Source: Patulibacter sp.
GTDB lineage: Bacteria > Actinomycetota > Thermoleophilia > Solirubrobacterales > Solirubrobacteraceae
Assembly (NCBI GenBank): GCA_015478825.1
Contig: JADMKN010000024.1
Location: 1-43,713 of the forward strand
Direction: 5' to 3'
DNA: 43,713 nt
Shown here: one piece after another, positions 9,890 through 34,740 of the stretch
Position numbering within the stretch: the stretch's first letter is position 1
Layout: the number at the start of each line of letters is the position of its first letter
Made by a program: the position numbers and the translations under genes
The notes under the pieces: model-generated
What the model saw: only the letters and a program-made list of their open reading frames with translations
The model's database searches: none
Told to the model about the DNA's origin: nothing

Positions 9890-9894
9890 TCGCG

Positions 9895-10320: not shown

Positions 10321-10323
10321 CCG

Positions 10324-11895: not shown

Positions 11896-11903
11896 GAGGA
11901 ACC

Positions 11904-12320: not shown

Positions 12321-12321
12321 C

Positions 12322-12338
12322 GGCCAGTCCGACAGGGC
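12322..12338 (+). repeat. dispersed 17-bp motif GGCCAGTCCGACAGGGC, copy 1
   Basis: Exact copy starting 1 nt after a TAG stop codon; same motif at 13704, 18438 and 31179. Confidence 0.85.
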
Positions 12339-12389
12339 GCGCGTCGCCCGCGCCCGGCCGCGTCGACGCGCGGTCCGCACCGTGGCGAC

Positions 12390-13697
12390 ATGGCGGTCTT
12401 CGGCGGTAGCGGTGGGGCGTACGTCTGGGCGGACGGGTCGACGCAGTCGATGGCCCGCCCGTCGATGGCGATCGGGGAGATCGCCGCCAGCGTCACGCTG
12501 ATCGGTGACCGGCCGATCAGCTACGACCGGATCTATCGCACCCAGCCGTGGGTCGCGGCGGCTGTGCACCTGCTGCAGCGCCAGGTCGCGCGACTGCCGA
12601 TCGGCACGTTCATCCCGACCGGCGACGGGGAGAGCTACAACCGCAGGCGGACCAAGGATCACGGGTTCGCGAGCCTGCTTTCGACCCCGGCCGACGGCCG
12701 GGCGCCGGTGGACCTGAAGGCCGAGATCATGCTCGACCTCGCGGTGCAGGGAAACCACCTCGAGCGGATCGTCCGCCGGACCGGCAGCCAAGAGCCGATC
12801 GGCCTGGAGAAGATCGACTGGCGCTCGGTGATGCCTGCCCTGTCCACGGACGGGATGCACGTGCTGGCATGGCGCGTAACCCCGATCGGCGGCGGGGCGA
12901 CCGAGGTCCTGATGCCGGAGGACGTCATCCACTTCCGGTGGCCGTCGCCGTCCGGGCCGATCGGCGTCTCGCCGCTGCAGCAGCTCGGCGTCACGATCCG
13001 CTCCGAGGACGGAGCGCAGCGCTACGCCGACTCGGCGATGCGCCACGGCGGCATGCGTGGCGTCGCGGTGCGGGTCGATAAGGAGTTCGCGCAGGACACC
13101 GTCCTGCACGACACGCTCCGCGAGGAGATCCTCCACAAGCACAGCGGGCCCGACCGCGCGCACGTCCCCTACATCATGGGCGGCGTCGAGGCGGTCGAGG
13201 AGATGCCGACGCAGTCGGCCGTCGAGGTTGAGCTGATCAAGCTGCGGCAGGTCAACCGCGAGGAGATCGCCGCCGTCTACGGGGTGCCGCCTGTCCTGAT
13301 CGGCGACCTGTCGCACGCGACCTACTCGAACGTCGAGAAGATGCACGAGATGCTCTACCTCACGGTCCTCGGACCGTGGCTGACGCTGATCGAGGAGCAG
13401 ATCGCAGCGCAGCTGGTCGCGCGCTACCTGCCGTGGCAGCTCGAGGGCGTGTGGTGCGAATGGTCGCTCGACGCCGTCATGAAGGGCGACGTCAAGGGCC
13501 GAATGGAGAGCTACCTCATCGGCCTGCGCGCCGGCGCGCTCACCATCAACGACATCCGCCGGCGCGAGAACCTCCCGCCGTTCAAGAACCCGCTCGCCGA
13601 CGAGCCGCTGATCCAGACGAACAACGTCTCGCCGCTCAGCACGATCGGCAACGACACCGAGGGCGAGCCGGCGTCGAAGGTTCCGGCCGCCGCGTAG
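12390..13697 (+). CDS. phage portal protein (HK97 family)
   Basis: RTQPWVAAAVHLLQRQVARLPIGTF, VIHFRWPSPSGPIGVSPLQQLG, VNREEIAAVYGVPPVLIGDLSHATYSNVEKMHEMLY. Confidence 0.93.
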   Translation: MAVFGGSGGAYVWADGSTQSMARPSMAIGEIAASVTLIGDRPISYDRIYRTQPWVAAAVHLLQRQVARLPIGTFIPTGDGESYNRRRTKDHGFASLLSTPADGRAPVDLKAEIMLDLAVQGNHLERIVRRTGSQEPIGLEKIDWRSVMPALSTDGMHVLAWRVTPIGGGATEVLMPEDVIHFRWPSPSGPIGVSPLQQLGVTIRSEDGAQRYADSAMRHGGMRGVAVRVDKEFAQDTVLHDTLREEILHKHSGPDRAHVPYIMGGVEAVEEMPTQSAVEVELIKLRQVNREEIAAVYGVPPVLIGDLSHATYSNVEKMHEMLYLTVLGPWLTLIEEQIAAQLVARYLPWQLEGVWCEWSLDAVMKGDVKGRMESYLIGLRAGALTINDIRRRENLPPFKNPLADEPLIQTNNVSPLSTIGNDTEGEPASKVPAAA

Positions 13698-13703
13698 CAC
13701 TGC

Positions 13704-13720
13704 GGCCAGTCCGACAGGGC
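13704..13720 (+). repeat. dispersed 17-bp motif GGCCAGTCCGACAGGGC, copy 2
   Basis: Exact copy starting 6 nt after the portal stop codon. Confidence 0.85.
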
Positions 13721-13751
13721 TACAGCGCGGCGATTCCTAGAGCGCCGGGCG

Positions 13752-14501
13752 GTGCCGCGCACGGTGGGCTGCGTGAAGCGCCAGCTCATAGGCACCGAGG
13801 AGCACAAGACCGCCGACCTGGCGCAGCTCACCGTCAAGACCGACGACGGCGCGCCCGGCCGATTCCAGGCACTCGCTGCGGTCTACGGAAACATCGACAG
13901 CCACGGCGACCGGATGGTCCGCGGCTGCTTCGAGGTGTCCCTCAAGGAGCGCGGATTCCCAAAGCTCGTCTGGTCGCACGATCGGCTCATTCCGCCGATC
14001 GGGATCGTCGAAGCCGCCGAGGAGGTCGACGCGGGCCTCCTGATCGACGGTCGCCTGTTCGTCGACAAGGACGCAGGGGAGGACCACCCGATCGCCCGCC
14101 AGGTCTGGGCCGCGATGTCCACCAAGGGCGGCGACGGGCGCCCGGGACTAGGCGACTTCTCGTTCGGTGCCCGGGTCCAGGCGGCGACGCTCGTCGAGGT
14201 CGACCCGGCAACCCTGCCCGACGATCTCCAGTGGACCGGCGGGCGGATCCGCGAGATCACCCGCTGCCGCCTCTGGGAGATCGGCCCCTGCCTGGTCGGC
14301 GCCAATGAGCAGGCCGGCCTCCTCACCGTCAAGTCGCTCGTCGACGCCCTCGGCGTCACGCCCGAGCAGGCCGCCGCCGCCCTCGAGCGGCGCGACGTCG
14401 GCCCCACCAAGACCTCCAGCCGCGGCGAGGTCGCGGACCGGACGCACGCCACGCGGCTCGCCGAGCTGCGGATCAAGCACCCCATCCCCAGCGAGGACTG
14501 A
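13752..14501 (+). CDS. HK97-type prohead protease
   Basis: FQALAAVYGNIDSHGDRMVRGCFEVSLKERGFPKLVWSHDRLIPPIGIVEAAEE, EITRCRLWEIGPCLVGANEQAGLL; alternative GTG start at 13773. Confidence 0.88.
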   Translation: MPRTVGCVKRQLIGTEEHKTADLAQLTVKTDDGAPGRFQALAAVYGNIDSHGDRMVRGCFEVSLKERGFPKLVWSHDRLIPPIGIVEAAEEVDAGLLIDGRLFVDKDAGEDHPIARQVWAAMSTKGGDGRPGLGDFSFGARVQAATLVEVDPATLPDDLQWTGGRIREITRCRLWEIGPCLVGANEQAGLLTVKSLVDALGVTPEQAAAALERRDVGPTKTSSRGEVADRTHATRLAELRIKHPIPSED

Positions 14502-14502
14502 G

Positions 14503-15918
14503 ATGAAGACCAAGACCCAGGAGGCCCAGGCGGCGATCGCGAAGCTCCGCGCCGACAAGAAGGCCGCCGACAAGAGGGCCGCCGACGCGCGCCTGGCCTT
14601 CGAGAAGTCGGATGCCGACCCGCTCGACCCGGAGACGCCGGAGTTCCAGGCGTTCGACGAGGCGAGCAAGACCGCCGACGAGCTCGGCGAGTCGCTGCGC
14701 AAGTCCACCGAGATGTACGCCCGCCTTTCGGGCGGCAGCTCGCAGCCGGGCCCCGGTCCGGACCCGGAGGACCCCGCCAACAAGATGCGGGGCGACAACT
14801 TCCTGGACCAGGCGGTCGAGGCCCTGAAGTCCGCGTCGGTAGGTCGCAAGGTCCTCGAGAGCGAGGCGACCAAGGCGCTGCTCGAGAAGGGCATCTTGAC
14901 CGGCCAGGCGCAGTTCGGTGCGCTCGAGCTCGGCAAGGCCTACTCGCGAGACGAGGTCAAGGCACTCGTCGGCACCGGCAACACCGCCAGCGGCGTGTCG
15001 AACCTGCTGACGCCCGACCGACTGCCGCTCGTCGACCTGGTGCCCAGCCGCCCGCCGCGGATGGTCGACCTGGTTTCGAAGGGGACCACGGACTCGAAGT
15101 CGATCGAGTACCCGGTCCTGATCCAGCGCGGCATGGCGGCCGGGTACGTCCCGGACCCGACGACCGCCGCGGCGATCGGCTCCGGTGACCCGGAGGTCAC
15201 CCCGGAGCAGGCCGGACGCAAGCCCGAGACGTCGCTCGTGTGGGACATCCGCTCGGCGACCGTCAAGACGCTCGCCACCTGGATCCCCGTCCACCGCAAC
15301 ATGATGGACGACGCGCCATACCTGCAGTCGATGATCGACGCGTACCTGCGCGACGAGCTCGAGCAGCGCATCGACCAGGACATCGCGACCGGCACCGGCG
15401 CCGGCGAGTCGTTCAAGGGGCTGCTGAACACCGACGGGATCGGTGCGGTCACCTACGGCGACGGGTCGATCATCGACTCCGCACACCGCGCGATGACCAC
15501 GGTGCGGCTGCAGTACGAGGAGCCGACCGCCTACGTCATCCACCCGACGACGTGGGAGACCATCCGGCTGCTGCGTGCCAGCCAGGTGATGGTCGACCCG
15601 GGAGACCCGAACGCCGAGCCGCCCGTGCTGCCCACGATGGAGCCGTCCGGCGAGTACCTGTTCGGCCGTCCGTCGCAGGCCGGCGAGGCGACGCTCTGGG
15701 GCAAGACGGTCGTCACGACCGCCGCGATCCCGCAGGGCACCATCCTGACCGGCGACTTTGCCAAGGCGATGCTCTGGTTCCGGACCGGCGTCCGGGTCCT
15801 CGCCAGCGACAGCCACGAGGACTTCTTCACGCGCAACCTCGTCGCGCTGCTCGCCGAGCTGCGCGCCGCATTCGGCGTGATCAAGCCGCTCGCGTTCGCC
15901 AAGGCGACCGCCTCTTGA
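14503..15918 (+). CDS. major capsid protein (HK97 fold)
   Basis: N-terminal helical delta-like domain, then VDLVPSRPPRMVDLVSKGTTDSKSIEYPVL, IPVHRNMMDDAPYLQSMIDAYLRDELEQRIDQDIATGTG, HPTTWETIRLLRASQVM. Confidence 0.93.
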   Translation: MKTKTQEAQAAIAKLRADKKAADKRAADARLAFEKSDADPLDPETPEFQAFDEASKTADELGESLRKSTEMYARLSGGSSQPGPGPDPEDPANKMRGDNFLDQAVEALKSASVGRKVLESEATKALLEKGILTGQAQFGALELGKAYSRDEVKALVGTGNTASGVSNLLTPDRLPLVDLVPSRPPRMVDLVSKGTTDSKSIEYPVLIQRGMAAGYVPDPTTAAAIGSGDPEVTPEQAGRKPETSLVWDIRSATVKTLATWIPVHRNMMDDAPYLQSMIDAYLRDELEQRIDQDIATGTGAGESFKGLLNTDGIGAVTYGDGSIIDSAHRAMTTVRLQYEEPTAYVIHPTTWETIRLLRASQVMVDPGDPNAEPPVLPTMEPSGEYLFGRPSQAGEATLWGKTVVTTAAIPQGTILTGDFAKAMLWFRTGVRVLASDSHEDFFTRNLVALLAELRAAFGVIKPLAFAKATAS

Positions 15919-15924
15919 GTCACG

Positions 15925-15949
15925 GGCGCGCGCCACCACGGCGCGCGCC
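15925..15949 (+). terminator. strong hairpin downstream of major capsid gene
   Basis: GGCGCGCGCC-ACCAC-GGCGCGCGCC: perfect 10-bp stem, 5-nt loop, no U-tract. Confidence 0.55.
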
Positions 15950-15973
15950 GTCCCCTCGATCGAAAGGCACCCG

Positions 15974-16663
15974 ATGGCCCTCGTTACCGCCAACGACAAG
16001 TACACGCTGGTCAAGGCCCCGAAGACGGGCCTCTACTACCACCCCGGCACCGAGCACCAGGCCTGGTACTCGCAGGGTGCGCTCATGCCACCCGAGTACA
16101 AGCCGGTCAAGACCGCGGGCGCCACCGACGTCGTCGACCAGGACGCCGCGCGCCTGCAACAGCTCATCGCCGCTGAGGCCGACGAGCGCGAGCGCCTGCA
16201 AAAGGAGCTCGACGAGCAGCGCGAGAAGACCGAGACGGAGGCGGCCCAGCGCAAGAGTGTCGAGGAGGCGCTCGAGGCGCTGCGCAAGGAGCCCAAGGTC
16301 GCCGAGGACGCCGACGAGCGCGAGCGCCTGCAAAAGGAGCTCGACGAGCAGCGCGAGAAGACCGAGACGGAGGCGGCCCAGCGCAAGAGTGTCGAGGAGG
16401 CGCTCGAGGCGCTGCGCAAGGAGCCCAAGGTCGCCGAGGACGCCGACGAGCGCGAGCGCCTGCAAAAGGAGCTCGACGAGGCGCGCGCCACCATCGCCGC
16501 ACTGCAGGCCGGCAGCGACGACGGCGCCGAGGCCGATGCGGGGGCGGGCGGCGACGATCAGACCGCGACCGCGACCGCCGAGGGCGAGAGCCCGGCACCG
16601 GCTACCCCGGCCGGGACCACGCCGCGGGCGCGGCGGAAGGGCCGGGGTGCCAATCAGTCCTGA
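15974..16663 (+). CDS. virion-associated coiled-coil protein with internal tandem repeat
   Basis: Small N-terminal region YYHPGTEHQAWYSQGALMPPEYKPVK, then repeated charged coiled coil; RBS-like GAAAGGCACCCG before ATG. Confidence 0.75.
   Translation: MALVTANDKYTLVKAPKTGLYYHPGTEHQAWYSQGALMPPEYKPVKTAGATDVVDQDAARLQQLIAAEADERERLQKELDEQREKTETEAAQRKSVEEALEALRKEPKVAEDADERERLQKELDEQREKTETEAAQRKSVEEALEALRKEPKVAEDADERERLQKELDEARATIAALQAGSDDGAEADAGAGGDDQTATATAEGESPAPATPAGTTPRARRKGRGANQS
16178..16480 (+). repeat. 132-bp exact tandem repeat, about 2.3 copies
   Basis: GCCGACGAGCGCGAGCGCCTGCAAAAGGAGCTC... starts at 16178, 16310 and 16442; first two units identical across 132 nt, third identical for 39 nt. 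Confidence 0.95.
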
Positions 16664-17216
16664 CGAGCCTGACGCCGTCGGCCCCGAGGGCCGGCGGCTC
16701 TGCACCCGCGACGAGCTCGTCGAGTTTGTCCGGGTGAAGGACGGCCCCGTCGCCGGCGAGGTGCTCGACCGGCTGATCAATAGTGCCAGCGAGCGCCTGA
16801 ACGCCGTGCGGCAGTTCTACGCGTCGACCGGCACCCGCACCTTCCAGGTCGACGGGCGGATGACCCGCCTGTCCGACCTCGACATCTCCCACGAGTGCAC
16901 GGTCCTCGCCGACGGCGTCGAGCTCACCGCCGCCGACCTGCGCTGGCTGCATCGGATGAACCATCCCGCGCACGCCGTCGTGCTCTACCGCGACGTCGGC
17001 ACCCTCACCGTGACCGGCCACTGGGGCTGGCCCGAGATCCCCGACGGGATCCGCACGGCGTGCCTTGAGTGGGCCAGCCGCGCCTACTTCCAACGTCAGT
17101 CACGGCAGGCCGACGTCGTGATGAACCACGAGACCGGAGTCGAAGACCGCTACTTCGTCCGGATGCCGTCCAGCGTCGGCGCTGCGCTCGTGCCCTACCG
17201 CCTGCTCGGAATATGA
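16647..17216 (+). CDS. head-tail connector / adaptor protein
   Basis: GTG at 16647; LCTRDELVEFVRVKDGPVAGEVLDRLINSASERLNAVRQFYASTGTRTFQVDG...; position after capsid. Confidence 0.65.
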   Translation: MPISPDEPDAVGPEGRRLCTRDELVEFVRVKDGPVAGEVLDRLINSASERLNAVRQFYASTGTRTFQVDGRMTRLSDLDISHECTVLADGVELTAADLRWLHRMNHPAHAVVLYRDVGTLTVTGHWGWPEIPDGIRTACLEWASRAYFQRQSRQADVVMNHETGVEDRYFVRMPSSVGAALVPYRLLGI

Positions 17217-17764
17217 CCGAGCTGATCCTCCGCACCGACGGGCCACGGTCGTGGCACCCCGAGGTCATCGTCGAGGCCGCCCGCCAGGCGGTGCACCACG
17301 TCGAGCCCGTTCTCCGCGCCGCGGCTCGCGAGCAGGCCGATCGAACCCGGACGCTCATCCACAGTCGCAGCGGCGAGCTGGCGCGCTCCGTCCGCGGTCA
17401 GGTCCGCCGCCGGCGGCGAGGCTACGTACTCCGGGTCGGCTCGTTCGGTCGCGGCAACTTCACCGTGCGCAACGGCGGGGCCCGCCGGCAGGAGTCCGGC
17501 TACCAGCTATTCCACGGCTACTTCGTCGAGCACGGCACCGGCGAGCAGGGCCCGCTCGCCCGAAGGATCCCCGATGACCGTCGCGGGCTCGTCCCGACGC
17601 GCGGTGGCCGCCGTCGCCCGACCGGGGCGGGCCAGGCGCCGCAGCGGCCGTTCAGTCGCGCCCGCGATGCGTACGACCGCGGGCCGTCGCACCAGCTTGA
17701 CCGGATGGTTCACGACCTGGTCGACCGCGAGATCGTGACCGCCGTTCGAAGGGCGTCGCGATGA
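17213..17764 (+). CDS. head closure / HK97 gp10-like protein
   Basis: AAREQADRTRTLIHSRSGELARSVRGQVRRRRRGYVLRVGS...YQLFHGYFVEHGTG; position between connector and tail terminator. Confidence 0.6.
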   Translation: MTELILRTDGPRSWHPEVIVEAARQAVHHVEPVLRAAAREQADRTRTLIHSRSGELARSVRGQVRRRRRGYVLRVGSFGRGNFTVRNGGARRQESGYQLFHGYFVEHGTGEQGPLARRIPDDRRGLVPTRGGRRRPTGAGQAPQRPFSRARDAYDRGPSHQLDRMVHDLVDREIVTAVRRASR

Positions 17765-18243
17765 CGACCTTCCGCGAGATCGCCGAGGCGCTCGTCGACA
17801 TCCTCGAGGAGGTCTCCGTTGCGCTCGTCGACGACGACCATCCCGGCAACCCGGACACCGGCCACTGGCTGAACGTGCATCGCTGGAGCTCCGCTCAGGT
17901 CGGCGCGCTGCCGGCAGCATGGCTTTCGCTGCTGCCCGACAGCCGCGTCGACGAGACCCAGAGCGACGGTTGCACCGTCACCGACGAGCTACGGATCGCG
18001 CTGAAGATCGCGGTCGACCCGTACGCCGACGGCGTTGGCGACGACATGTGGGAGATGGAGCGCGTCGTCGACATCGCGGTTCCGGTCGTCGACCGCGCGA
18101 TGGAACAGGCCCACGACCGCTGGGGGATCTCGCTCGCTCGTCGCACCGACATCCAGTTCGCCAACGAGCAGCTCGGCGCCGGCAACGTGCTCGCGCTCGT
18201 CATCCCCCTCCACATCACCTGGACCCACCCGATCCCCGACTAG
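17761..18243 (+). CDS. tail terminator-like protein
   Basis: MTTFREIAEALVDILEEVSVALVDDDHPGN...; position directly upstream of the tail genes. Confidence 0.55.
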   Translation: MTTFREIAEALVDILEEVSVALVDDDHPGNPDTGHWLNVHRWSSAQVGALPAAWLSLLPDSRVDETQSDGCTVTDELRIALKIAVDPYADGVGDDMWEMERVVDIAVPVVDRAMEQAHDRWGISLARRTDIQFANEQLGAGNVLALVIPLHITWTHPIPD

Positions 18244-18251
18244 GGAGCAGC

Positions 18252-18551
18252 ATGCCCACGCCCCGCAGCAAGACCACCACCCGCAAGCCCGCCGACAAGG
18301 ACGTCGAGCCGGACACGGAGCCCAAGAAGGCCCAGGGATCCGACGCCTATCCCGAGCCGCCCGTCGTTGAGCCGACCGAGCCGCCGGCCGTCGACGCATC
18401 GGACCTGCTCGACATCGAGACCTTGCCGATCCCCGACGGCCAGTCCGACAGGGCGTCTGAGGCGAAGGCCGCGCGCACGATCGCCGAGCAGTCCTACATG
18501 GACAACGAGGCGCGCCGGTCGGCGCGGTCCACCGCGAACCCGGAGAACTGA
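18252..18551 (+). CDS. low-complexity hypothetical protein
   Basis: MPTPRSKTTTRKPADKDVEPDTEPKKAQGSDAYPEPPVVEPTEPPAVDASDLL...; SD GGGAG upstream. Confidence 0.6.
   Translation: MPTPRSKTTTRKPADKDVEPDTEPKKAQGSDAYPEPPVVEPTEPPAVDASDLLDIETLPIPDGQSDRASEAKAARTIAEQSYMDNEARRSARSTANPEN
18438..18454 (+). repeat. dispersed 17-bp motif GGCCAGTCCGACAGGGC, copy 3 (intragenic)
   Basis: Exact copy inside the 18252-18551 CDS (codons GGC CAG TCC GAC AGG GCG). Confidence 0.85.
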
Positions 18552-18553
18552 CC

Positions 18554-19627
18554 ATGGCCCGCTGGCTCGGAATCGCCCCCGACCCCAACAGCAACATCGG
18601 GGGATCGACCTACGACCTCCTGACCGAGAGCGGCCCCATCGAGTGGCCGGACCCCACCGTGTTCCTGCCCGCGACCGATGGCAACAGCGAGCGCAACCAC
18701 GAGGACACCCCCCGCAACGACGAGACGACGCTTGGTCGCGGCGCGCTGCCTCCGGTCTCGTACCGTGCGGATCCCGGCTGGTCGTTCTCGGTGCCGCTCT
18801 ACATGCCCGTCGCGCGGCTCGTGCTGCCGGCCGCCTACGGCAAGGTCGGCACACCGGTCGGCACCGCACCGGCGTCCATCTCGACGCCGCTCTCCCCGGT
18901 CGACTACGGGGCACGCCTGCCGTCGCTGATTATCTGGCTCGTCCGCGACGGGCAGCTCGAGCGTCACGCCGGTGCGTGGATCGAGCAGCTCACGCTCAAC
19001 ACGCAGGGTGCGCGCCCGATGCTGCAGGTGTCCGGCAAGTCGCTGTTCCGCGACGTCGACGATGCCGTCGACCTGCCGACGCCGACCCGGATCTCCGCCA
19101 AGGACACCCTCGCCAGCGTCACGTTCTCCGCCAAGACCGGCGAGGGTTCGGGCACGCCAATCGGGTGCGTCACGACGTTCACGTTGACGCACAACAACAA
19201 CTTCGAGGCGGACGCCGACGCCCGGTTCTGCGCCGGCGAGAACGTCGTGACGGAGCTCGTCGACGGCCGCTACAAGCGCCGCCAGTACCCCGGCCAGCAC
19301 ATCCTGGGCGAGCACACCACGACGGGCACGATCGGGATGGCGAAGCCGCGCGTGGACATCGAGGGCCGCACGCTGCTCGGGACGTCCGAGCGTCTGGTCG
19401 CGTCCCTGTCGGGCAACCCGATCGACGGGGCGACGCCGGCGGCCGACGAGTCGCTCGTGTTCGACATGCCGTCCTGGGTTGTCACCGGCGGTGAGGGTGC
19501 CGGCGCACTGACGAAGACCGGCGCGATCAAGGCGACCTACGACTGGGGCGGATTCGTCGACGAGGAGACCGGCGCGGATCTCACCGTGTCGATCGTCGAC
19601 GAGACCGCGGTCGCGCAGCCCGCCTAG
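18554..19627 (+). CDS. major tail protein
   Basis: MARWLGIAPDPNSNIGGSTYDLLTESGPIEWPDP...ATDGNSERNHEDTPRNDETT...; position upstream of tail chaperone and tape measure. Confidence 0.75.
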   Translation: MARWLGIAPDPNSNIGGSTYDLLTESGPIEWPDPTVFLPATDGNSERNHEDTPRNDETTLGRGALPPVSYRADPGWSFSVPLYMPVARLVLPAAYGKVGTPVGTAPASISTPLSPVDYGARLPSLIIWLVRDGQLERHAGAWIEQLTLNTQGARPMLQVSGKSLFRDVDDAVDLPTPTRISAKDTLASVTFSAKTGEGSGTPIGCVTTFTLTHNNNFEADADARFCAGENVVTELVDGRYKRRQYPGQHILGEHTTTGTIGMAKPRVDIEGRTLLGTSERLVASLSGNPIDGATPAADESLVFDMPSWVVTGGEGAGALTKTGAIKATYDWGGFVDEETGADLTVSIVDETAVAQPA

Positions 19628-19665
19628 CCGACCGACCGCGGACGGAACAGCGCCGACCGCGGAAC

Positions 19666-19695
19666 CTGGCCGCCGTCCACCTGGGCGGCGGCCAG
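19666..19695 (+). terminator. hairpin between major tail protein and tail assembly chaperone
   Basis: CTGGCCGCCG-TCCACCTGGG-CGGCGGCCAG: perfect 10-bp stem, 10-nt loop, no U-tract. Confidence 0.55.
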
Positions 19696-19723
19696 CACGA
19701 CCAGCACGACCTCCAGGGGGATC

Positions 19724-20251
19724 ATGAGCACCAAGAGCACCAAGAAGTACGAGGTATTCGACGCCGACGAACGCGACCTCGAGCGGACGTCCGCCGGGCT
19801 GCGGTTCAACGGCAAGCTGTACCGCCGCGCGCGCCGCAACAACAAGGTGCAGCGCACGATCCGCCGGAAGGGCCGCGATCAGATCCGCCTGCTCGAGGAG
19901 ATCGACGAGGCCCGCAAGATTCCCGAGGTCGACCGGCTCACCGCCAAGCTTGCTGAGACCGAGGACGCGGACGAGATCGCCAAGCTCGAGGTCGAGCTGA
20001 AGGAGGTTCGCGACAGCGTCGACGAGGACCACGTCGACGAGCTGCAGGACCAGTACGAGGATGGCCTCTTCGAGGTGCTCGAGCTGCTGCTGGGCGAGGC
20101 CGAGGACGGCACCCGTCTCACGGCCGCCGACCTGGCCGACCTCGACATCGAGGACGCCGTCGGCCTGTCCAACGAGCTGATGGGGATCAACAAGGCCGAG
20201 GACGAGCAGGCCGCGGCCAACGCGGAGGAGGACGCCGAGGACCCTACCTAG
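19724..20251 (+). CDS. tail assembly chaperone, upstream reading frame
   Basis: Acidic helical protein directly upstream of the tape measure; FNGKLYRRARRNNKVQRTIRRKGRDQIRLLEEIDEARKIPEVDRL. Confidence 0.7.
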   Translation: MSTKSTKKYEVFDADERDLERTSAGLRFNGKLYRRARRNNKVQRTIRRKGRDQIRLLEEIDEARKIPEVDRLTAKLAETEDADEIAKLEVELKEVRDSVDEDHVDELQDQYEDGLFEVLELLLGEAEDGTRLTAADLADLDIEDAVGLSNELMGINKAEDEQAAANAEEDAEDPT

Positions 20252-20283
20252 TCGGCCTGGTCACCCTCCAGCGCTACACGTCG

Positions 20284-20436
20284 ATGACGACCGCCGAGTA
20301 CGACGAGATGGACCCCGCAGAGGTGCCGGGGCGTCTCGCTGCGCTCAACAAGGTGCTGGCGGCGGAGGCCGACGAACGTCTCGAGCACACCAAGCTGCTC
20401 GCCGAGGTCCTGATGCTGGCGGCCCGCCGTGGCTGA
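20284..20436 (+). CDS. tail assembly chaperone, downstream (-1) frame
   Basis: In the -1 frame relative to 19724-20251, open across the upstream stop: PYLVGLVTLQRYTSMTTAEYDEMDPAEVPGRLAALNKVLAAEADERLEHTKLLAEVLMLAARRG*. Start shown is the first ATG; expression is probably by frameshift. Confidence 0.55.
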   Translation: MTTAEYDEMDPAEVPGRLAALNKVLAAEADERLEHTKLLAEVLMLAARRG

Positions 20437-23400: not shown

Positions 23401-26400
23401 GGTAATCCGTCGCGACAGCAACGCCGAACGCGGCGCCATAGCGACGCAGCAGCGCGAGGTTCGCGGTGCGTTTGCGAGTGACGCTCGGCGATACAAGTGG
23501 TTCGACGAGCGGCAGTTGCAGGCTGACGCCAAGAAGCAGCTCGAGGCATTGTCTCCGGCCGCGCGCGATGCCGCCGCGCGGTCGATGGCCGAGTGGGCGC
23601 GGACGATCGAGAAGGACGGCCGGCTCCCGAAGGGCGCGACCGGGCGCCTGGTCATGGAGCTTGGCCGCCTGCCCGGCGACCTGCCGCAGAAATGGGAGCG
23701 CTCCACCCGCGCTGCGGTGGACGCGATCGACAGTCAGGTGGAGGATCGCCGGGTGGTGCGGTCCGCGAAGCGGCTGATGGATGAGCTCGGCCGGCTGTCG
23801 CCGTCGCTCGATATCGAACTCGACACCAAGACCCTGCCCGGCAGCGTCGCCAAGATGCGCACCCAGATGGACACACTGCGCAAGATGGCGACGGACAAGT
23901 CGCTGCCGAAGGAGATGCGGGAGGACGCCGAGCGCCAGCTCCCCGGGGTGAAGAAGGCCTACGACGAGTCGCTCACGCGCATGGCGTGGCGCATGGGCAT
24001 GTCCGAAAAGGACGCGGGCACCTGGGCGCGGCGGGTCTCCCGCGCCGCACGGGAGACCGGTGACAGCGCCGACTCGGTGGACGTCCTTCGCAGGGAGGTA
24101 AAGAAGCTCACCGACGAGATGGGCACCTCCCGCGACCCGGTGAAGCGCCTCGAGGCGGCGTTCCGCGATCTCGGATCCACCGCCGCGCAGGCGAAGAAGC
24201 TGGCCGAGGAGGCGACGAAGGTTCCGCCGCCCGCATCCGGGCCGCTGATCGACGACCGCAACACGTTTGATCTTCCCTCGCTGCCGAAGCCGAAGCCGAA
24301 GCCGAAGCGCACCGGCGGTCCGATCAGGGCGTACGCCCACGGCGGCCCGATCGTTGACACGTTGATGTCGGGCGGCGAGGAGTACCTGCCGCCGGACGTC
24401 GCCTCCCGTTACCCGCCGGGGATCCTCGAGACGATCGCCAACGCGCAGCGCCCGCACTTCTACCGCCACGGCGGGCCGGTGGGCGGTCGCTACAACCTGG
24501 GCGGTCACATCATCCCTGGCCCGTCGGACCGCGACGGCACCTACGTGCCGGCCGAGGAAGGCGGTTTCGTTCTCACCGGGCATGGCCGCGAGCTGCGCGA
24601 CGCGATGATGAACTTCGCGAAGGGCGGGTTCGTCGCGACCGCCTACGGGCCGCCGTGGGGCGGCATTCAGGGCCAGGGCGTTACCAAGACCGGTGTCGAC
24701 CTGAAGTCGGGCCCGAAGCGCTACATCATCGCGGTCGACCCGTCGGTGATCCCGCTGCACACCCGCACCGGAGTGTGGCCCAACCCGTTCGGCTACCGCG
24801 GCAAGTTCGCCGCCGAGGACACGGGCGGCGCGATCAAGGGCAAGCGGATCGACTTCTACGACTGGCGCGGACGCGAGTCCCAGAACAAGTGGGGCCGCCG
24901 GACGGTCAGCGTCGGCACGTCAACGACCCGCGCCGATGGAAGCAAGGCGGCGACGCCCGGCTACTCCTACACGAAGGTCACCGACGACGTGAGGGGCATG
25001 GCCGCGCGCGACGCATATCGGCAGCGCGCCGTTCTGCGGACCCCCAACGTGGACGTGTCCGGCGTGTTCGACCAGGCCCGACAGAACGCCTACGACGCGG
25101 TCGCGCGGTCGCAGATGCTGAGCGAAATCGTCGAGGCGGGCCGCGTCAACATCGAGCGGCGCAAGGTCACCGTGGCCGGCGAGCGCGGACGCAAGGCGGA
25201 CAGCGCCGGCGGCAGTGGTGGCCCCTTGCCGTCACGGTCGAAGGTCGTGGAGGCGGCACGTGATCTGAGGTCTCCGAACCTTCGCGGCGCCAACGCCGGA
25301 ATGGGCGTCTACGGCCGCCTGGGCAAGTACTTCGGCCTGACGATTTCGTCAGGCCGTCGATGGGGCGCGGTCACCAGCTCCGGCAACAAGTCCGCCCACG
25401 GGGACGGCAGTGCGATCGACCAGTCGGGTAGCGCGGCGAACATGCTCCGCTACGCGCGGTGGCTCAGCTCAAGCGGTATCGCGCGCGGAATGGATCAGCT
25501 GATCCACACGCCGCTGGGGCACGGCTGGAACAAGGGGTCGAAGGTGCCGCTGTCGTTCTTCGGTCAAAAGGTCAACGACGACCATTACGACCATACGCAT
25601 GCCGCCGACACCACACCGCCGCGGTTCCGCCGTGGCGGCCCGGTCGGGATTCGCCGCATGGCGACCGGCGGCCGGGTAGGGTCGACGTCGCGGATCGTGC
25701 GCGACACCGGACGCGCGATCAACACGAAGCCGGCCGCGGCGGCGCTGCGGTCGCTGTACGGCGCCGGGGTCCGTGAGCAGCGCCAGGTCACCGACGCACT
25801 CGAGCAGCTGCAGACCCTGCTCGGCGAGGCCAGCAAGGTCAGCGTCGAGCGCCTGGCAGCGCTGAACCGCGAGCTGGTGCGCGGCATCGACCGTACCCGC
25901 GCGAAGCGCTCGCCCGGCGGGACGGCGATCACGCGCGGCGAGGAAGCGCAGAACCGGCGCTCCCGGTCCGTGCTTGCGGAGGTGCAATCCGAGATCCTCA
26001 AGCGGGCCGCGTCACCCGCTCGCCGAGCTGACCAGCTCAGCGTCGCGATCGAGGATCAGCGCGCCATGATCGACCGGTCGATGCGCCGCGCCGACGTGGA
26101 TCCCGAGTCGACCATCGGCCTGCAGCGGATGGGCCGGCAGACCGATTGGGAGAAGGCGCAGCGCGGCGTGCAGCTCGCCCGGCTGGAGCGCGCCCGCGAG
26201 ATCGCCAGGAAGGCGGGGCGGTCGGGCCGCGAAACGGTGCAGGGCCTCGACGAGGAGATCAAGGCGCTCCGTGGCGACATCTCAGAGCTCGCGGTGCAGC
26301 AGGTCGAGAACGCCCGCGCCCAGGTCGCCAGCGCGATCGCCGACATGGAGCGCGCGGTCCAGGGCAGCGTCGACGCCGCCCAGTACCGCGTCGACTACAG

Positions 26401-27091
26401 CGGCGCGCAGATGGCCGAGTTCGACGCCTACCAGTCGCTGGGCCGCAACTCGGGCACCGCCGAGGGCATGATGCAGCGCGGCCACTACCAGCAGGCGCAG
26501 TACGGCCCGCTCGTGGAGCTGCGCGACACGCTGCTGCACCAGGCGTCGGTTGCCGCCCAGCTGCACGGCCAGGACTCCGAGCAGTTCCGCAGCGCGATGC
26601 AGTCCGCGCAGCAGGTCGCCGCCCAGGCGGTGCAGACCCTCGCCGACGGTGCCGAGCAGATCCGGCAGGCGTCGATGAAAGCCGTCCAGAACGTCGTCGA
26701 CTACGCGGCGCACGGCTCGTCGATGTCCAGCATGGGACTGCAGGGCCTCGAGCTGCGCCAGCGCCTCGACAAGACCTACGACGGCGGAGGACACCAGCGC
26801 GCCGAGTACATCCGCAACAACGTGATCCCCGCCCTCGAGGCGGAACGCGCCGCGCTGGAGCAGCGCCGTGCCGAGAGCGAGCGCCAGGAAGCTGGCCAGA
26901 CCGACAAGCCGTTGACCCGCGCCGACATGGAGGCGATCGCCGCGAAGCAGAACGAGATCCTGCAGGCGTCGCTGACGGCGCAGGAGGCGATCGAGGCGAA
27001 CACGAACTCGAAGCGAACCGGCGGGTCTCTCGGCTTCGGGTTCGGCGGTGACGTGTACACGGACGTGCTACTTGACGGGGTGGGCGCATGA
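20429..27091 (+). CDS. tape measure protein with internal 3D-like and M15-like peptidase domains
   Basis: 2220 aa; TP901-type N-terminus (YERQMSQVQAVMGATRQEMRQLDAMAVDLGAKTAFSASESSMALSELGKAGF); FVATAYGPPWGG...DPSVIPLHTRTG...FAAEDTGGAIKGKRIDFYDW; and ISSGRRWGAVTSSGNKSAHGDGSAIDQSG...DDHYDHTHAAD. Confidence 0.95.
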   Translation: MADSRSLVTRHLQEWVTRGDEKLLQVGRQLATADRAREREQRRLQASYRQLAVAASTAGLRETAASRSATTAAKTKTGSITQLSAAQQRLQREVLGAARAQLTEERAMRSATRAAAQYSAAKQRQVESLAKVTAAANTSSAALSRNARAGAAAARTGGGGALTEARQAGSRGIGIATGVAGAAGAAGIFGLAGLAREAIDYERQMSQVQAVMGATRQEMRQLDAMAVDLGAKTAFSASESSMALSELGKAGFTAQQSLKTLPGTIDLAAASGTELADAATIQSDALRGFGMDVSQSTHVADVFAVAVNRSAIEMSDLGYTLKYMAPIAATTGQSFEDMSAAVAILGNVGIRGDTAGTTLRRVMTSLVKPTAASTEALAELGLKAKDLQGPDGLLPLPDIIARLVEEASKLPKADQMRVMTTIFGRESISGTMALLDHGAPKLRALAKEMRNADGAADDMARTMQDNVYYQMEQVQGAVESLALTIFKEFAPGLQAAATSAAGSIEVWTATEGNVERITDAIGDFTGMLGDLVAAGMPVVDLAVSMVDAWQGLPDPVRSSVLQFGALALITRKLAGSAAAGGLISVFDRIRGGLRGTAAEATAAQAALGGLTTPIPASTVSATAAGARTAMADGGPSPVTFAARDAADANRAAATRQGALATRMRIEARDAAASYERDMRRMAAMPMVVARAEQQASLARNTSALGGSSAARIQAAEATAAAARKELQTLGTRTEESRRYALERRAAATAATTEARATAQTARLLRSQAGHHARMDTVAAPSAGRIARGREGRQLGAIGTWQMTRGLGGTRRDALAESARRTAGRVPIPSGRGIAGVAAAGGIGAALSGGDVASAAISGGAVGMMAGPWGAAAGAAGAAGITALVNEFKKASTKRAEDAAREFGERITENTRDAMDAGFRRPSARRVGEARATVDAAEQIRKLERQAREARARTPGVGAAGVRGQTSGDIEAQRLIKQARERAKTAGLDYDAVIRRDSNAERGAIATQQREVRGAFASDARRYKWFDERQLQADAKKQLEALSPAARDAAARSMAEWARTIEKDGRLPKGATGRLVMELGRLPGDLPQKWERSTRAAVDAIDSQVEDRRVVRSAKRLMDELGRLSPSLDIELDTKTLPGSVAKMRTQMDTLRKMATDKSLPKEMREDAERQLPGVKKAYDESLTRMAWRMGMSEKDAGTWARRVSRAARETGDSADSVDVLRREVKKLTDEMGTSRDPVKRLEAAFRDLGSTAAQAKKLAEEATKVPPPASGPLIDDRNTFDLPSLPKPKPKPKRTGGPIRAYAHGGPIVDTLMSGGEEYLPPDVASRYPPGILETIANAQRPHFYRHGGPVGGRYNLGGHIIPGPSDRDGTYVPAEEGGFVLTGHGRELRDAMMNFAKGGFVATAYGPPWGGIQGQGVTKTGVDLKSGPKRYIIAVDPSVIPLHTRTGVWPNPFGYRGKFAAEDTGGAIKGKRIDFYDWRGRESQNKWGRRTVSVGTSTTRADGSKAATPGYSYTKVTDDVRGMAARDAYRQRAVLRTPNVDVSGVFDQARQNAYDAVARSQMLSEIVEAGRVNIERRKVTVAGERGRKADSAGGSGGPLPSRSKVVEAARDLRSPNLRGANAGMGVYGRLGKYFGLTISSGRRWGAVTSSGNKSAHGDGSAIDQSGSAANMLRYARWLSSSGIARGMDQLIHTPLGHGWNKGSKVPLSFFGQKVNDDHYDHTHAADTTPPRFRRGGPVGIRRMATGGRVGSTSRIVRDTGRAINTKPAAAALRSLYGAGVREQRQVTDALEQLQTLLGEASKVSVERLAALNRELVRGIDRTRAKRSPGGTAITRGEEAQNRRSRSVLAEVQSEILKRAASPARRADQLSVAIEDQRAMIDRSMRRADVDPESTIGLQRMGRQTDWEKAQRGVQLARLERAREIARKAGRSGRETVQGLDEEIKALRGDISELAVQQVENARAQVASAIADMERAVQGSVDAAQYRVDYSGAQMAEFDAYQSLGRNSGTAEGMMQRGHYQQAQYGPLVELRDTLLHQASVAAQLHGQDSEQFRSAMQSAQQVAAQAVQTLADGAEQIRQASMKAVQNVVDYAAHGSSMSSMGLQGLELRQRLDKTYDGGGHQRAEYIRNNVIPALEAERAALEQRRAESERQEAGQTDKPLTRADMEAIAAKQNEILQASLTAQEAIEANTNSKRTGGSLGFGFGGDVYTDVLLDGVGA

Positions 27092-28497
27092 GCGACCCGA
27101 CGTGGTACCCGGTCCGGTTCGGGCCGCTGCGATTCGCGTCGCTCGTCGGCCCGGAGACCGAATCGTTGGGTGACAAGCTCGAGGCGGTCGGATCAGCGTT
27201 GGTGCCTGGCGAGCGGGGTGCGACGTCCCGCCCGCTGACGCTCCCGGTGCGCGGATCTCTGCGCGAGGTCGACGATCGCGCAGCGGGGCTGCGGCTGCGT
27301 CGCCAGGTGCGCGCGCTGCTGGGCAACCGGACATGGCTTAGTGGCGGCCTGTACCTCGAGACGGGTGCCGATCCTGAGTCCCGATGCTGGCTGGCCGTCG
27401 GGTCGGGTGAGCTGGCCGGGAACGGTCGGGGGATCACGTTCGCCGATTGGCGCCTCGAGCTGGAGGCATACCGGGTTGGGAGTCCTGCAGAGGTGTGCCG
27501 TGGTCGCCGGATCGTGATCGCGGACCGTGCCCAACCGGGCGTCGCGTCGGACACCCGCCGGACGCTCTACACCACCGACCGTGCAGGTTGGGACATCGAC
27601 GACGCGCCGCGCGCGTACCTGCCGGGGTCGATCAGCACCGTCCGGCAGCTCAACGAGCCATGGACCCACTACGCCGGCCCGTCGGTCGACGGGAGGCCGC
27701 TGTGGACGGAGGGCGCGGAGGACGCGACCGCTGGCGGGGTGTCCTGGTCGCCTGACCGTAGCGCCCTGCCGAGCCCGGTGGAGCGGGAGCCGCGCGTCGA
27801 AGAGCATGGCGAGGTGCGCGCGTGGTGGATGCCGACGCCGTGGTCGGACGTGGTCCCCACCGCCGTCGGTGATCGTGACCCGACCGTCTACGGCTGGGAG
27901 CGCCTGCTGGGCGCCGCGCACGACCCGGGCATCCGGGTGGCGATCGACAACGGCTGGTGCCGCCTGGTGTGGATCGGGACGGGGTACAACGACGGTGTCC
28001 AGCTGGAGCGTTGGGACGATGCCGACGGCGGCCGGTACGTGCCGGTCATCCGGCTTGAGCTGGGTGCCGACCCTACGGGGCACAGCGACATGCAGGTGAT
28101 CGAGCTGACCCCGGAGCGGGCTGTGATCGCCCGGTATGTGGGCGGAGCGGAGTACCGGATGATCCTGCAGCGCGGATGGCCCGGCCCGCGGATCGAGGCG
28201 TACCCGCGCGGGACAGGGATCGCTGCACGCCTCGCGGTGCTGGATGCCATCACCCGCACGAACCTGGAGCCGGGCGTCGACCGGATCGAGCTCGGAGGCG
28301 AGGCGGCACTCGTTGCGCTCGCCACCGACGATGTCGACTGGGGCATCTCGTGGAACACGTGGAGCGTCTTTGGGCAGCCGGTCGTGGCGCAGTTCGACCT
28401 GCATCCGCCGCCCGTCATCGGGCCCGCGGATGCCGACGACGTCAAGCGTCTCGCCCGTTGGGACGTGCAGCAGCAGCCGATCCTGATGACGAGGTAA
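27088..28497 (+). CDS. distal tail protein-like
   Basis: Immediately downstream of tape measure with 4-nt overlap; WYPVRFGPLRFASLVGPETESLGDKLEAVGSALVPGERGATSRPLTLPVRGSL. Confidence 0.65.
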   Translation: MSDPTWYPVRFGPLRFASLVGPETESLGDKLEAVGSALVPGERGATSRPLTLPVRGSLREVDDRAAGLRLRRQVRALLGNRTWLSGGLYLETGADPESRCWLAVGSGELAGNGRGITFADWRLELEAYRVGSPAEVCRGRRIVIADRAQPGVASDTRRTLYTTDRAGWDIDDAPRAYLPGSISTVRQLNEPWTHYAGPSVDGRPLWTEGAEDATAGGVSWSPDRSALPSPVEREPRVEEHGEVRAWWMPTPWSDVVPTAVGDRDPTVYGWERLLGAAHDPGIRVAIDNGWCRLVWIGTGYNDGVQLERWDDADGGRYVPVIRLELGADPTGHSDMQVIELTPERAVIARYVGGAEYRMILQRGWPGPRIEAYPRGTGIAARLAVLDAITRTNLEPGVDRIELGGEAALVALATDDVDWGISWNTWSVFGQPVVAQFDLHPPPVIGPADADDVKRLARWDVQQQPILMTR

Positions 28498-28503
28498 CGG
28501 GCG

Positions 28504-31170
28504 ATGGCCACCACAGTCCTTGGCGGCGACCGGCCGCTCACCCTGCTGGACGACACCGCGGTGACCGCACGGCACATCGTGCGCGCCGCCGAATCCGATC
28601 CCGGCGCCGTGGAGGTACTGCCCGGCCAGTGGTGGGCGCCGGCCCCCGGCAACGCCTTGGAGGGCGAGCAGGGTTGGGTATCGGCGAGCGTCGAGCGTCG
28701 ACTGTCGGACCATGGGCTGCTCAGCTCGCTGACGTTGCCCAACGCGCCGGGCCCCGACGGGATCGAGCATCGCGAACGGTTCGCTGTGCGGTCCGGGCCG
28801 CGGTACAAGGCGGGGCACGAATGGGTTGAGCTCACCGATCGCGCGTCCCAGCGCGCACTAGCGGTGGAATCCCCCACCACCGCCCGGGTCGACGGGTCGA
28901 CGGTCAACGTCTCCGGCGTCGACGCTGGTGCCCTCCCGTCCGGCTGGCGCGAGGGGAAGCTCGCAATGTGGACCGCGTCGGCACCACAGGACGTGGTCGA
29001 TCACTACAGCCAGGCGCCCATGGCGGTCGTCGCCGACAGTTTCCTCCAGTCCCAAACGTCCGGCTGGACCCTCAACGGCGCGCCGACCCATCCGACCGCC
29101 TCGTCCCTTGGGCTCGCGTTCGCGCCCACATCCTCGGGCTCCAATGCCGCATCGAAGCCGGTGACCACCCCGACAGAGCCCGGTGGGTCATGGTCCGCGA
29201 AGTTCGAAGTTGTTCCGCACGCATTGCCACCCGCCGGGTACATGCAGTTCGGCTGCGGCACCCCGGCGGGTACCGTCTTCTGCGCCCTCTCCTACGCCAG
29301 CGGTGCGTGGAGCGTGTCGCTGTGGTCGGGGCCGTCGAGCCGGAAAGCGAACGTGCCAGCGCTGACAGCAGGTGAGACGACCGCGATCGAGATCATCGCC
29401 TCGAATGGCTGGATCTCATTGGTCGTTGACGGTGCCGTCGCGCTGCAGGTTCGCCGGGCCGGCGACGACCGTCCGACCAGCCTCGTCGCACTCGCGACCA
29501 ACGGCGTCAACGTGACGTTGCGGCGTGCAGAGCTCAGGGCGCTGGTCCCGTTCCTGCGGCGAGCAGCCGCGGCGATCGACTATCGGCTGCCGGGCGCACC
29601 ACCGCCCGGCGGACTGACGGGCGACTACTACCTCGAGACCGACACGTGGGCCAAGGCCGCCGGCGACTACGCCTCATTCTGGGCAACGGCGCTCGCCCCG
29701 GCGTCCGAGCCGTACGCGACGCGGGTCGATCCGCAGCTCCAGTTCGGCGCGGACGGCTGGATGCCACCCGGTCCGCCCGGGTGGCGCCAGTTTTCGGTGC
29801 GCTGGCACGGGGCGGTCTACCTGCCGCTCGCCGAGCGCGACGTGTGGTGCGGCCTCTACGGCGTCGCGGGACTGAACATCGTCGGTATGGCGCGTATGTG
29901 GATCGGGTCGACCCGTGCCGGCTCCCCCTACCTCGACAAGGCGTGGTCCGGTGAACAGCAAGCCCCCGGAAGCGGCGGCAGTCTCCGATCACATCTCGGC
30001 TCCAGCAAGTCGGGGTGGTATCCGATCGTGATCGAGTACGCGGCGGGAGCGACCGGAGACGCGCCGCGGATCGCCCTGACCAGCAGCACGGGCGCGTCGG
30101 CAACCCCCCAGGTAACGATCCCGTCTGCGCAGTTGTCTCCCTATGGCTGCTGGTCCGGCGACGTCGCCGGCGAATCGCACCGCGAGATCATCGATGCGGT
30201 GGCTACCGCGAGCGGCCTGCAATGGCGGGTACAGCCGTGCACGCTGGAGTCCGGGGAGTTCCCGGGCAGATTGGAGTTCGGGCGACCGCTCGGCCAGCAG
30301 ACCGACTACGTTCTCGAGGAGCACGCGGCCACCGAGTACATGGCGGAAGTCGACGCGGGCGAGACGTGTAACCACATCCACGGAGACGGTGCTGGACTCG
30401 GCAAGGCGGACGGGTCCGACCGAGGATTGACGGTCGACATCCTCGACCCCGACGCCACGGACGATCCGTGGCTGACCACCCGATACGAGCAGCTACAGGA
30501 CATCACGGAGCTCTCGCTGATGCAGCAGCGACTCGACGCACTGCTGGCGCTCTACTCCACGCCGCACGAGCAGGTGGCCGCCCGACCGAAAAGCTCATCC
30601 GACGAGCAGGTCTACGAGTGGGGTGACGCATTTCCCGCCGTCGGTTCGGTACGACAGATGCACTGGGAGCCCGGCGACGGGATCCGTCTGCACCTACCGT
30701 CGGTTGGCGTGAACGACCTGACGCCGCGGCAGATTGCGACGGTGCAGCAGACGCTGCGGCCGGCGGGCCGCGTCCCACCGGTACTCGGGTTCCGCCAGCG
30801 GCCGCGGCACCTGCGCGAGCGTCTGCGGACGCTGACACGGCAGGCGACCGTTGGTCGCCGCAGCTACCAGGGGCAGTTGGCGATGATCACGGGCTCCAGC
30901 GGGTCAACGTCGACGACCATCGCCCCGGACGGCTACAGCCGACTGGGGTTGCCGTCGCGCGGGATCGTGCGGGTCGAGCTGCGGATCGTCGGGATGAGCG
31001 GGTCCGCCCAGATCGAGGTACTTGGTGTCGCGACCGGGATCACCGCCACCCGACCGGGCACCTACGACGTCACCGCCTGGGTGCCGCCCGGCGCAGCCGA
31101 GGCCTATGCCCGCCTGACCTCGCCCACGGGCGTCTACAACATCCAGCTCGTCGCAACGTTGGCCATCTAG
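28504..31170 (+). CDS. minor tail / tail tip protein with LamG/concanavalin-like region
   Basis: 888 aa; central region VADSFLQSQTSGWTLNGAPTH...GSWSAKFEVVP...GETTAIEIIASNGWISLVVDGAVALQVRRAGDDRPTSLVALATNGVNVTLRRAELRAL resembles a jelly-roll lectin fold. Confidence 0.65.
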   Translation: MATTVLGGDRPLTLLDDTAVTARHIVRAAESDPGAVEVLPGQWWAPAPGNALEGEQGWVSASVERRLSDHGLLSSLTLPNAPGPDGIEHRERFAVRSGPRYKAGHEWVELTDRASQRALAVESPTTARVDGSTVNVSGVDAGALPSGWREGKLAMWTASAPQDVVDHYSQAPMAVVADSFLQSQTSGWTLNGAPTHPTASSLGLAFAPTSSGSNAASKPVTTPTEPGGSWSAKFEVVPHALPPAGYMQFGCGTPAGTVFCALSYASGAWSVSLWSGPSSRKANVPALTAGETTAIEIIASNGWISLVVDGAVALQVRRAGDDRPTSLVALATNGVNVTLRRAELRALVPFLRRAAAAIDYRLPGAPPPGGLTGDYYLETDTWAKAAGDYASFWATALAPASEPYATRVDPQLQFGADGWMPPGPPGWRQFSVRWHGAVYLPLAERDVWCGLYGVAGLNIVGMARMWIGSTRAGSPYLDKAWSGEQQAPGSGGSLRSHLGSSKSGWYPIVIEYAAGATGDAPRIALTSSTGASATPQVTIPSAQLSPYGCWSGDVAGESHREIIDAVATASGLQWRVQPCTLESGEFPGRLEFGRPLGQQTDYVLEEHAATEYMAEVDAGETCNHIHGDGAGLGKADGSDRGLTVDILDPDATDDPWLTTRYEQLQDITELSLMQQRLDALLALYSTPHEQVAARPKSSSDEQVYEWGDAFPAVGSVRQMHWEPGDGIRLHLPSVGVNDLTPRQIATVQQTLRPAGRVPPVLGFRQRPRHLRERLRTLTRQATVGRRSYQGQLAMITGSSGSTSTTIAPDGYSRLGLPSRGIVRVELRIVGMSGSAQIEVLGVATGITATRPGTYDVTAWVPPGAAEAYARLTSPTGVYNIQLVATLAI

Positions 31171-31178
31171 AGCGCAGG

Positions 31179-31194
31179 GGCCAGTCCGACAGGG
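31179..31194 (+). repeat. dispersed motif GGCCAGTCCGACAGGG, copy 4 (16 of 17 nt)
   Basis: Exact 16-mer starting 8 nt after the tail-tip stop codon; 17th base is A instead of C. Confidence 0.85.
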
Positions 31195-31286
31195 ATCAGC
31201 GCGTCGCGCCACGCCGCCGCCGCGACGATACAGAGCACGATCGCAGCGTGTTGACTCCGAACCGGCCCCAGAACGGCGCGTCGTGA

Positions 31287-33044: not shown

Positions 33045-33051
33045 CCGCGGA

Positions 33052-33258: not shown

Positions 33259-33267
33259 CTGGGATGA

Positions 33268-34431: not shown

Positions 34432-34451
34432 GGGCGAAATGTAACCGTATA

Positions 34452-34513: not shown

Positions 34514-34521
34514 GCGGGCAG

Positions 34522-34722: not shown

Positions 34723-34740
34723 TCCACATCCAAGAAGGGG

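What the first reader, a model, noticed from the sequence alone, without database searches (positions are those of the whole stretch)
12322..31194. Unidirectional dispersed motif GGCCAGTCCGACAGGG(C), four copies across the structural operon
Seen: identical 16-17 bp at 12322-12338, 13704-13720, 18438-18454 and 31179-31194, all on + strand. Three copies sit 1-8 nt after stop codons in the few real intergenic gaps; one is inside a low-complexity gene. The motif is a near-palindrome (CCaGTCcGACaGG), as expected of a dimeric protein site, yet every copy has the same orientation. A 16-mer recurring four times in 44 kb is not expected by chance. Established: mycobacteriophage L5-type stoperators are asymmetric, co-oriented repressor sites in short intergenic gaps, and other actinophages carry start-associated repeats; this motif matches none that I recognise. 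Inference: stoperator-like silencing site, RNA element, or recombination joint between late-gene modules.
Basis: partly seen in the sequence, partly recalled or inferred. Interest (0 to 1): 0.82.

Follow-up and report, generated by a model that had tools for sequence, protein, structure and literature searches.

The report
Prophage-specific repeat between late genes
One bacterial prophage carries the same 16-letter DNA word four times, always facing the same way and mostly in the tiny gaps between its late (capsid, tail and lysis) genes; it is real and specific to this phage, probably a binding site for a phage regulator, and resembles several unexplained repeats already described in phages of Actinobacteria.

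Summary
GGCCAGTCCGACAGGG occurs exactly four times in the 43.7-kb window, all on the + strand (12322, 13704, 18438, 31179). No other copy exists in the 3.37-Mb genome, even with one mismatch. Simulated sequences never repeat a 16-mer more than twice. Three copies lie wholly in non-coding gaps, 1, 6 and 8 nt after TAG stops (P about 2e-5 for 3 of 4).

The near-palindrome is not unusual (P about 0.16-0.20), so dimer symmetry is not evidence. The word is absent from the immunity region; the likely repressor operator is a different box (TGCGCGCA x3). A classical stoperator bound by that repressor is therefore unlikely. A recombination joint is unlikely for copies 1 and 2: the flanking genes are syntenic and similarly diverged (58-68% identity) in the closest relative (L013), whose same gaps lack the word. 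No RNA fold, Rfam family, sigma-70 promoter or terminator marks the sites.

Best reading: a phage-specific, orientation-dependent regulatory site acting on late transcription; the binding factor is unknown. It belongs to the loose known class of lineage-specific co-oriented intergenic repeats of actinophages (Microbacterium clusters EC and EI), with a new sequence and few copies.

The parts
12322..12337 (+). motif copy 1, in the 69-nt gap between gene 11904-12320 and the portal gene
   Evidence: exact match; 1 nt after TAG, 52 nt before ATG 12390; removing exactly these 16 bp gives the best alignment of the gap to the L013 gap
13704..13719 (+). motif copy 2, in the gap between portal and head maturation protease
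   Evidence: exact match; 6 nt after TAG; 53 nt before GTG 13773, a start supported by the alignment with L013
18438..18453 (+). motif copy 3, inside a 99-aa low-complexity gene, read in frame as part of DGQSDRA
   Evidence: exact match; in-frame AGG is 2.8% of Arg codons here
31179..31194 (+). motif copy 4, after the 888-aa tail-region gene, before the small genes that precede the endolysin
   Evidence: exact match; 8 nt after TAG; 92 nt before GTG 31287
10324..11895 (+). terminase large subunit (context)
   Evidence: PHROG 9, E 7e-69
11904..12320 (+). small gene between TerL and portal, predicted N-terminal helix plus a conserved small domain; position equivalent of Arthrobacter phage Eesa gp4, annotated 'RNA binding protein'
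   Evidence: alignment with relatives, annotation
12390..13697 (+). portal protein (context)
   Evidence: PHROG 12, E 3e-61
13773..14501 (+). head maturation protease (context)
   Evidence: PHROG 80; 58% identity to L013
34452..34493 (.). three TGCGCGCA boxes in the divergent repressor/RHH promoter region: probable immunity operators, unrelated to the motif
   Evidence: repeat search and window-wide count

Best explanation
The 16-18 bp word is a phage-specific, orientation-dependent cis-acting site in the late (head-tail-lysis) operon. A phage-encoded, still unidentified factor most likely recognises it and acts on transcription running through the operon, for example by slowing, stopping or re-licensing the polymerase between genes, much as stoperators work in Cluster A mycobacteriophages but with a different protein and different site. 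Shown: the repeat, its orientation, its placement in gaps, its restriction to the prophage, and its difference from the immunity operators. Inferred: that a protein binds it, that the binding is to DNA rather than to the transcript, and that elongation is what is affected.
For: Four 16/16 identical copies sit in unrelated flanks. No 16-mer recurs more than twice in simulations. All four lie in the direction of transcription; three lie in the few gaps, just after stop codons (P 2e-5). There are no other copies in the genome, which points to a phage-encoded ligand rather than a host one. The coding copy keeps all 16 bases at the price of a rare Arg codon. In gap 1 the word behaves as a discrete unit gained or lost relative to L013: its exact removal gives the best of 54 possible alignments (P about 0.03-0.04 against shuffles). 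Other phages with related head genes carry their own, different repeats, some also in the portal-protease gap: G025, the L285/L286/L300 lineage and Elener. Rapid turnover of the word with persistence of the habit is what co-evolving site and binder would give.
Against: There are only four copies, one of them inside a gene. The prophage's repressor region lacks the word, so no binder can be named. No relative carries the word, so conservation over time cannot be tested. Exact identity of all copies could also reflect recent spread without function.
Confidence: 0.4

Rival explanations
1. The word acts in the mRNA: a linear recognition site for an RNA-binding protein or RNase that separates or protects the late-gene transcripts.
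For: Orientation and position just after stop codons fit equally well. The gene directly upstream of copy 1 sits where the related phage Eesa has a protein annotated as RNA-binding.
Against: No structure beyond shuffles at any copy, no Rfam match. The small gene is conserved in phages that lack the word. Copy 3 is not after a stop codon.
Confidence: 0.2
2. The copies are a short sequence that spread by recombination or copying errors and has no function now.
For: In gap 1 the word looks like a discrete insertion relative to L013. Three copies share 18 bp. It sits where insertion is harmless: gaps and one disordered, low-complexity protein segment. Short direct repeats at gene junctions are known in Corndog (PMC4351075).
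Against: All four have the same orientation. The portal gene framed by copies 1 and 2 is as similar to L013 as TerL and MCP are, so no swapped module is seen. No mobile element accompanies the copies.
Confidence: 0.22
3. The word is an activator or promoter element for internal late promoters.
For: Copies 1 and 2 lie 52 and 53 nt upstream of the next start codon.
Against: Copies 3 and 4 are 100 and 92 nt away. No sigma-70-like promoter was found in 9300-20500 or 30500-37200. The 52 nt after copy 1 are almost pure G+C, without a -10-like stretch.
Confidence: 0.1
4. Classical stoperators of the repressor encoded at 33988-34431.
For: Short, co-oriented, mostly intergenic sites that are prophage-specific.
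Against: The repressor's own promoter region has no copy, not even with 4 mismatches, but has TGCGCGCA three times and nowhere else in the window. Four copies, against 14 in MabJ prophages (PMC9934374).
Confidence: 0.05
5. Partition (parS-like) sites of a ParB protein.
For: A ParB_N protein is encoded at 9302-9889. A related phage, G025, does have a ParB with a ParB helix-turn-helix and a dispersed palindrome.
Against: The window's protein has ParB_N only, no HTH_ParB. The word is not significantly palindromic. The copies are co-oriented and confined to the late operon. An integrase is present.
Confidence: 0.03

Closest known systems
18-bp asymmetric repeats of Microbacterium Cluster EC phages, and the 30-bp repeats of Cluster EI (PMC7302621)
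   Same: Asymmetric short words in small intergenic regions of actinophages, unknown function, specific to one phage group
   Different: EC has 12 imperfect copies 22-30 bp upstream of start codons, many among non-structural genes; here 4 perfect copies 52-100 nt upstream of the next start, all in the late operon, in a prophage
Stoperators of Cluster A / MabJ mycobacteriophages (PMC9934374, PMC9283540)
   Same: Asymmetric, one orientation relative to transcription, short intergenic gaps
   Different: No copy at an immunity operator or early promoter, only four copies, different sequence, unrelated to the local operator box
Start-associated sequences (SAS) of Cluster K mycobacteriophages (PMC3203893)
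   Same: Short repeated, co-oriented words tied to gene boundaries
   Different: SAS overlap the ribosome-binding site; here the word is tied to the end of the upstream gene and at least 52 nt from the next start
17-bp palindromes of Cluster O mycobacteriophages (PMC4351075)
   Same: Dispersed, about one third inside genes
   Different: Cluster O sites are true dyads in both orientations with more than 30 copies; this word is not significantly palindromic

Membership tests
[quoted passage not shown]
   four of four on +, same as the late genes; symmetry not above chance
Stoperator system (Cluster A type) | sites mostly in short intergenic regions | tested here: met
   three of four, P 2e-5
Stoperator system (Cluster A type) | at least one copy is a true operator overlapping the early lytic promoter / immunity region | tested here: not met
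   no match within 4 mismatches in the repressor-RHH region or in the 6.9-7.8 kb gaps; no further copy in the genome
Stoperator system (Cluster A type) | sites are bound by the phage repressor and stop transcription | not testable with these tools
   needs EMSA and transcription assays
Start-associated sequence (Cluster K / EF) | word directly upstream of start codons in the RBS position | tested here: not met
   distances to the next start 52, 53, 100 and 92 nt
Lineage-specific dispersed intergenic repeat of actinophages (EC/EI kind) | several copies in small intergenic gaps of one phage group | tested here: met
Lineage-specific dispersed intergenic repeat of actinophages (EC/EI kind) | conserved in the other members of the phage group | tested here: inconclusive
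   no close relative available; nearest (L013, about 67% protein identity) lacks it
parS/ParB partition sites | palindromic site plus a ParB with a ParB HTH domain | tested here: not met
   palindrome P 0.16-0.20; ParB_N only
Structured RNA element / riboswitch | folding beyond composition or match to a known family | tested here: not met
   z-scores 0.1, -0.4, -0.4, 0.8; no Rfam match
Intrinsic terminator | GC hairpin followed by a T run at the copies | tested here: not met
   none at any copy

The most novel reading that the evidence does not exclude
A second, repressor-independent elongation-control system: a phage factor other than the immunity repressor binds a 16-18 bp polar site between late genes and tunes or silences head-tail-lysis transcription, with the site sequence turning over quickly between phage lineages while its place in the head-gene gaps persists.
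Probability: 0.12. Interest if true: 0.65.

Novelty: new member of a known kind. Interest (0 to 1): 0.36.

Why it matters
Short co-oriented repeats between phage genes have been reported in several actinophage clusters, and their function was left open in the reports read here apart from stoperators. This one is compact (four perfect copies), confined to the late operon and clearly distinct from the immunity operator, so it could separate 'repressor stoperator' from 'other late-gene control' in a direct experiment. The comparison also suggests that the gaps around the portal, protease and capsid genes repeatedly host different lineage-specific words.

Tried and rejected
Promoter and terminator scans around the copies: nothing at the sites. 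RNA folding and Rfam: nothing. An apparent motif-plus-hairpin pattern seen by eye did not survive shuffles. Constant 52-53 nt spacing to start codons: true for copies 1 and 2, but the GTG at 31248 near copy 4 opens only a 12-codon frame closed by TGA, and the next gene starts at 31287. Motif hits in IMG/VR: eight exact hits, all single, four of them one coding sequence in near-identical contigs, three others in GC-poor contigs. A version with two free positions gave more than 100 stretches; all those listed were single hits. Motif hits in GTDB genomes: at least 118 contigs; all those listed were single hits, many in Rhodobacterales. Order-wide scan: one stray single hit in 231 other genomes. 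Searches for closer relatives by TerL, MCP, major-tail-region protein and portal found only L013 above 50% identity. Structure prediction of the 11904-12320 product was poor over its conserved domain (pLDDT below 50) and was not used.

Full report
Setting. It holds most of a siphophage-type prophage: helicase, methyltransferase and replication genes at the left, then terminase (10324-11895), a small gene (11904-12320), portal (12390-13697), protease (13773-14501), major capsid protein (14503-15918), connector and tail genes, tape measure (20429-27091), tail genes to 31170, endolysin (31908-33044), repressor (33988-34431, minus strand), RHH protein (34522-34722) and tyrosine integrase (35817-36884). 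Host genes follow, such as an oxidoreductase at 38654-40039. The contig begins inside the prophage, so its left edge is missing here, but all other contigs were included in the whole-genome scans. The host could not be named with the tools; high G+C and phage relatives point to Actinobacteria (inference).

The observation. GGCCAGTCCGACAGGG is present exactly four times, always on +. The shared stretch is 18 bp (CGGCCAGTCCGACAGGGC) in copies 1-3 and 16 bp in copy 4. An order-3 Markov model of the window never produced a 16-mer more than twice in 30 runs. The rest of the genome has no copy at up to one mismatch. At up to two mismatches it has 3, against 15 for the reversed control pattern. The symmetric core CCNGTCNGACNGG is likewise near its control count in the genome (19 sites including these four, against 15). 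The word is therefore specific to the prophage and not a host regulatory, Chi-like or KOPS-like sequence.

Placement. In the late region (9302-33044) only 2.4% of bases are non-coding, and only 1.7% of 16-mer positions lie wholly in gaps, yet three of four copies do (P 2e-5). They start 1, 6 and 8 nt after TAG stops. The fourth lies in a low-complexity 99-aa protein and is read as GQSDR, with the rare codon AGG (2.8% of Arg codons). Distances to the next start are 52, 53, 100 and 92 nt; the similarity of the first two is not shared by the others. Other late-operon gaps (9890-9936, 15919-15973, 19628-19723, 20252-20283, 31515-31554) do not carry the word.

What it is not. RNA folding around the copies equals shuffles, Rfam finds nothing, and no sigma-70 promoter or T-tailed terminator lies at the sites. 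The divergent repressor/RHH region holds TGCGCGCA three times within 42 bp, an 8-mer found nowhere else in the window, and nothing resembling the word. A stoperator of that repressor should share its operator, so this membership test fails, although the general way of working is not excluded.

Comparison with relatives. The only relative above 50% identity is the 7-kb IMG/VR contig L013. Its TerL, portal and MCP are 67-68% identical and its protease 58%, in the same order. Its two corresponding gaps (49 and 76 nt) lack the word. Because the portal gene framed by copies 1 and 2 is no more divergent than its neighbours, the copies do not mark the joint of a swapped module. When the word is removed from gap 1, the remainder aligns to the L013 gap better than after any other 16-bp deletion (rank 1 of 54; P 0.03-0.04 against dinucleotide shuffles), which suggests gain or loss of a discrete unit. 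Gap 2 gives no such signal. Nineteen further portal relatives in IMG/VR have at best 3-mismatch, single matches.

Other phages in the same comparison have their own words. G025:C14 has a palindrome CGGCAANNTTGCCG about every 3 kb, including the portal-protease gap and the gap after the capsid gene. L285/L286/L300 have GCCGATAGGCGCG 3-4 nt before start codons, including the protease start. G035 has CTTCGACCGAGGACSGGGG, in several cases just before start codons. Curtobacterium phage Elener has a 3-copy element whose first copy follows the portal gene. This parallels published cases: Microbacterium clusters EC, EI, EG and EF (PMC7302621), Cluster O (PMC4351075), Cluster K SAS (PMC3203893) and stoperators (PMC9934374).

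Judgement. The finding is a genuine, prophage-specific, co-oriented repeat of the late operon. The most likely explanation is a polar binding site for an unidentified phage factor acting on late transcription (0.4). An mRNA-level site (0.2) and a non-functional spread repeat (0.22) remain serious rivals. It is a new example of a known, functionally unresolved kind of feature, hence moderate interest.

Noticed in passing
G025:C14 (L026+L027), sites at 2767, 8768, 10503, 13022, 15757, 18807, 21987, 26241, 29564, 32188 of the contig: A related phage contig carries palindrome CGGCAANNTTGCCG about every 3 kb (one other copy in its 3.5-Mb genome) and encodes a 767-aa protein with ParB_N and HTH_ParB domains, one site lying just upstream of that gene: probably a dispersed parS array. 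Cluster O phages, with more than 30 unexplained palindromes and a ParB-like protein, may be comparable, although the authors of PMC4351075 thought their ParB-like protein unlikely to act in genome stability.
   Followed up: partly
L300:6138-13200, L286:11578-18640, L285:4207 and 7085: A start-associated-sequence-like word GCCGATAGGCGCG lies 3-4 nt before ATG/GTG at three head-tail genes in a phage lineage seen in three IMG/VR contigs.
   Followed up: partly
L030:8245-9630 (G035:C3 about 423.2-424.6 kb): CTTCGACCGAGGACSGGGG occurs six times in 1.4 kb, in several cases just before start codons: another SAS-like family in a prophage of the same host family.
   Followed up: no
window 34452-34493: Three TGCGCGCA boxes between the divergent repressor and RHH genes, absent elsewhere in the window: probable immunity operators.
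   Followed up: partly
window 15919-15973: The gap after the major capsid gene holds a perfect GC-rich inverted repeat (GGCGCGCGCC-ACCAC-GGCGCGCGCC) without a T tail.
   Followed up: no
window 16167-16562: Two 132-bp direct repeats (98% identical) plus a diverged third copy inside gene 15974-16663.
   Followed up: no
window 5383-5513: Four close copies of CCTCCTCGCCTCAGACGA inside the replication-initiator gene, a possible origin iteron array.
   Followed up: no
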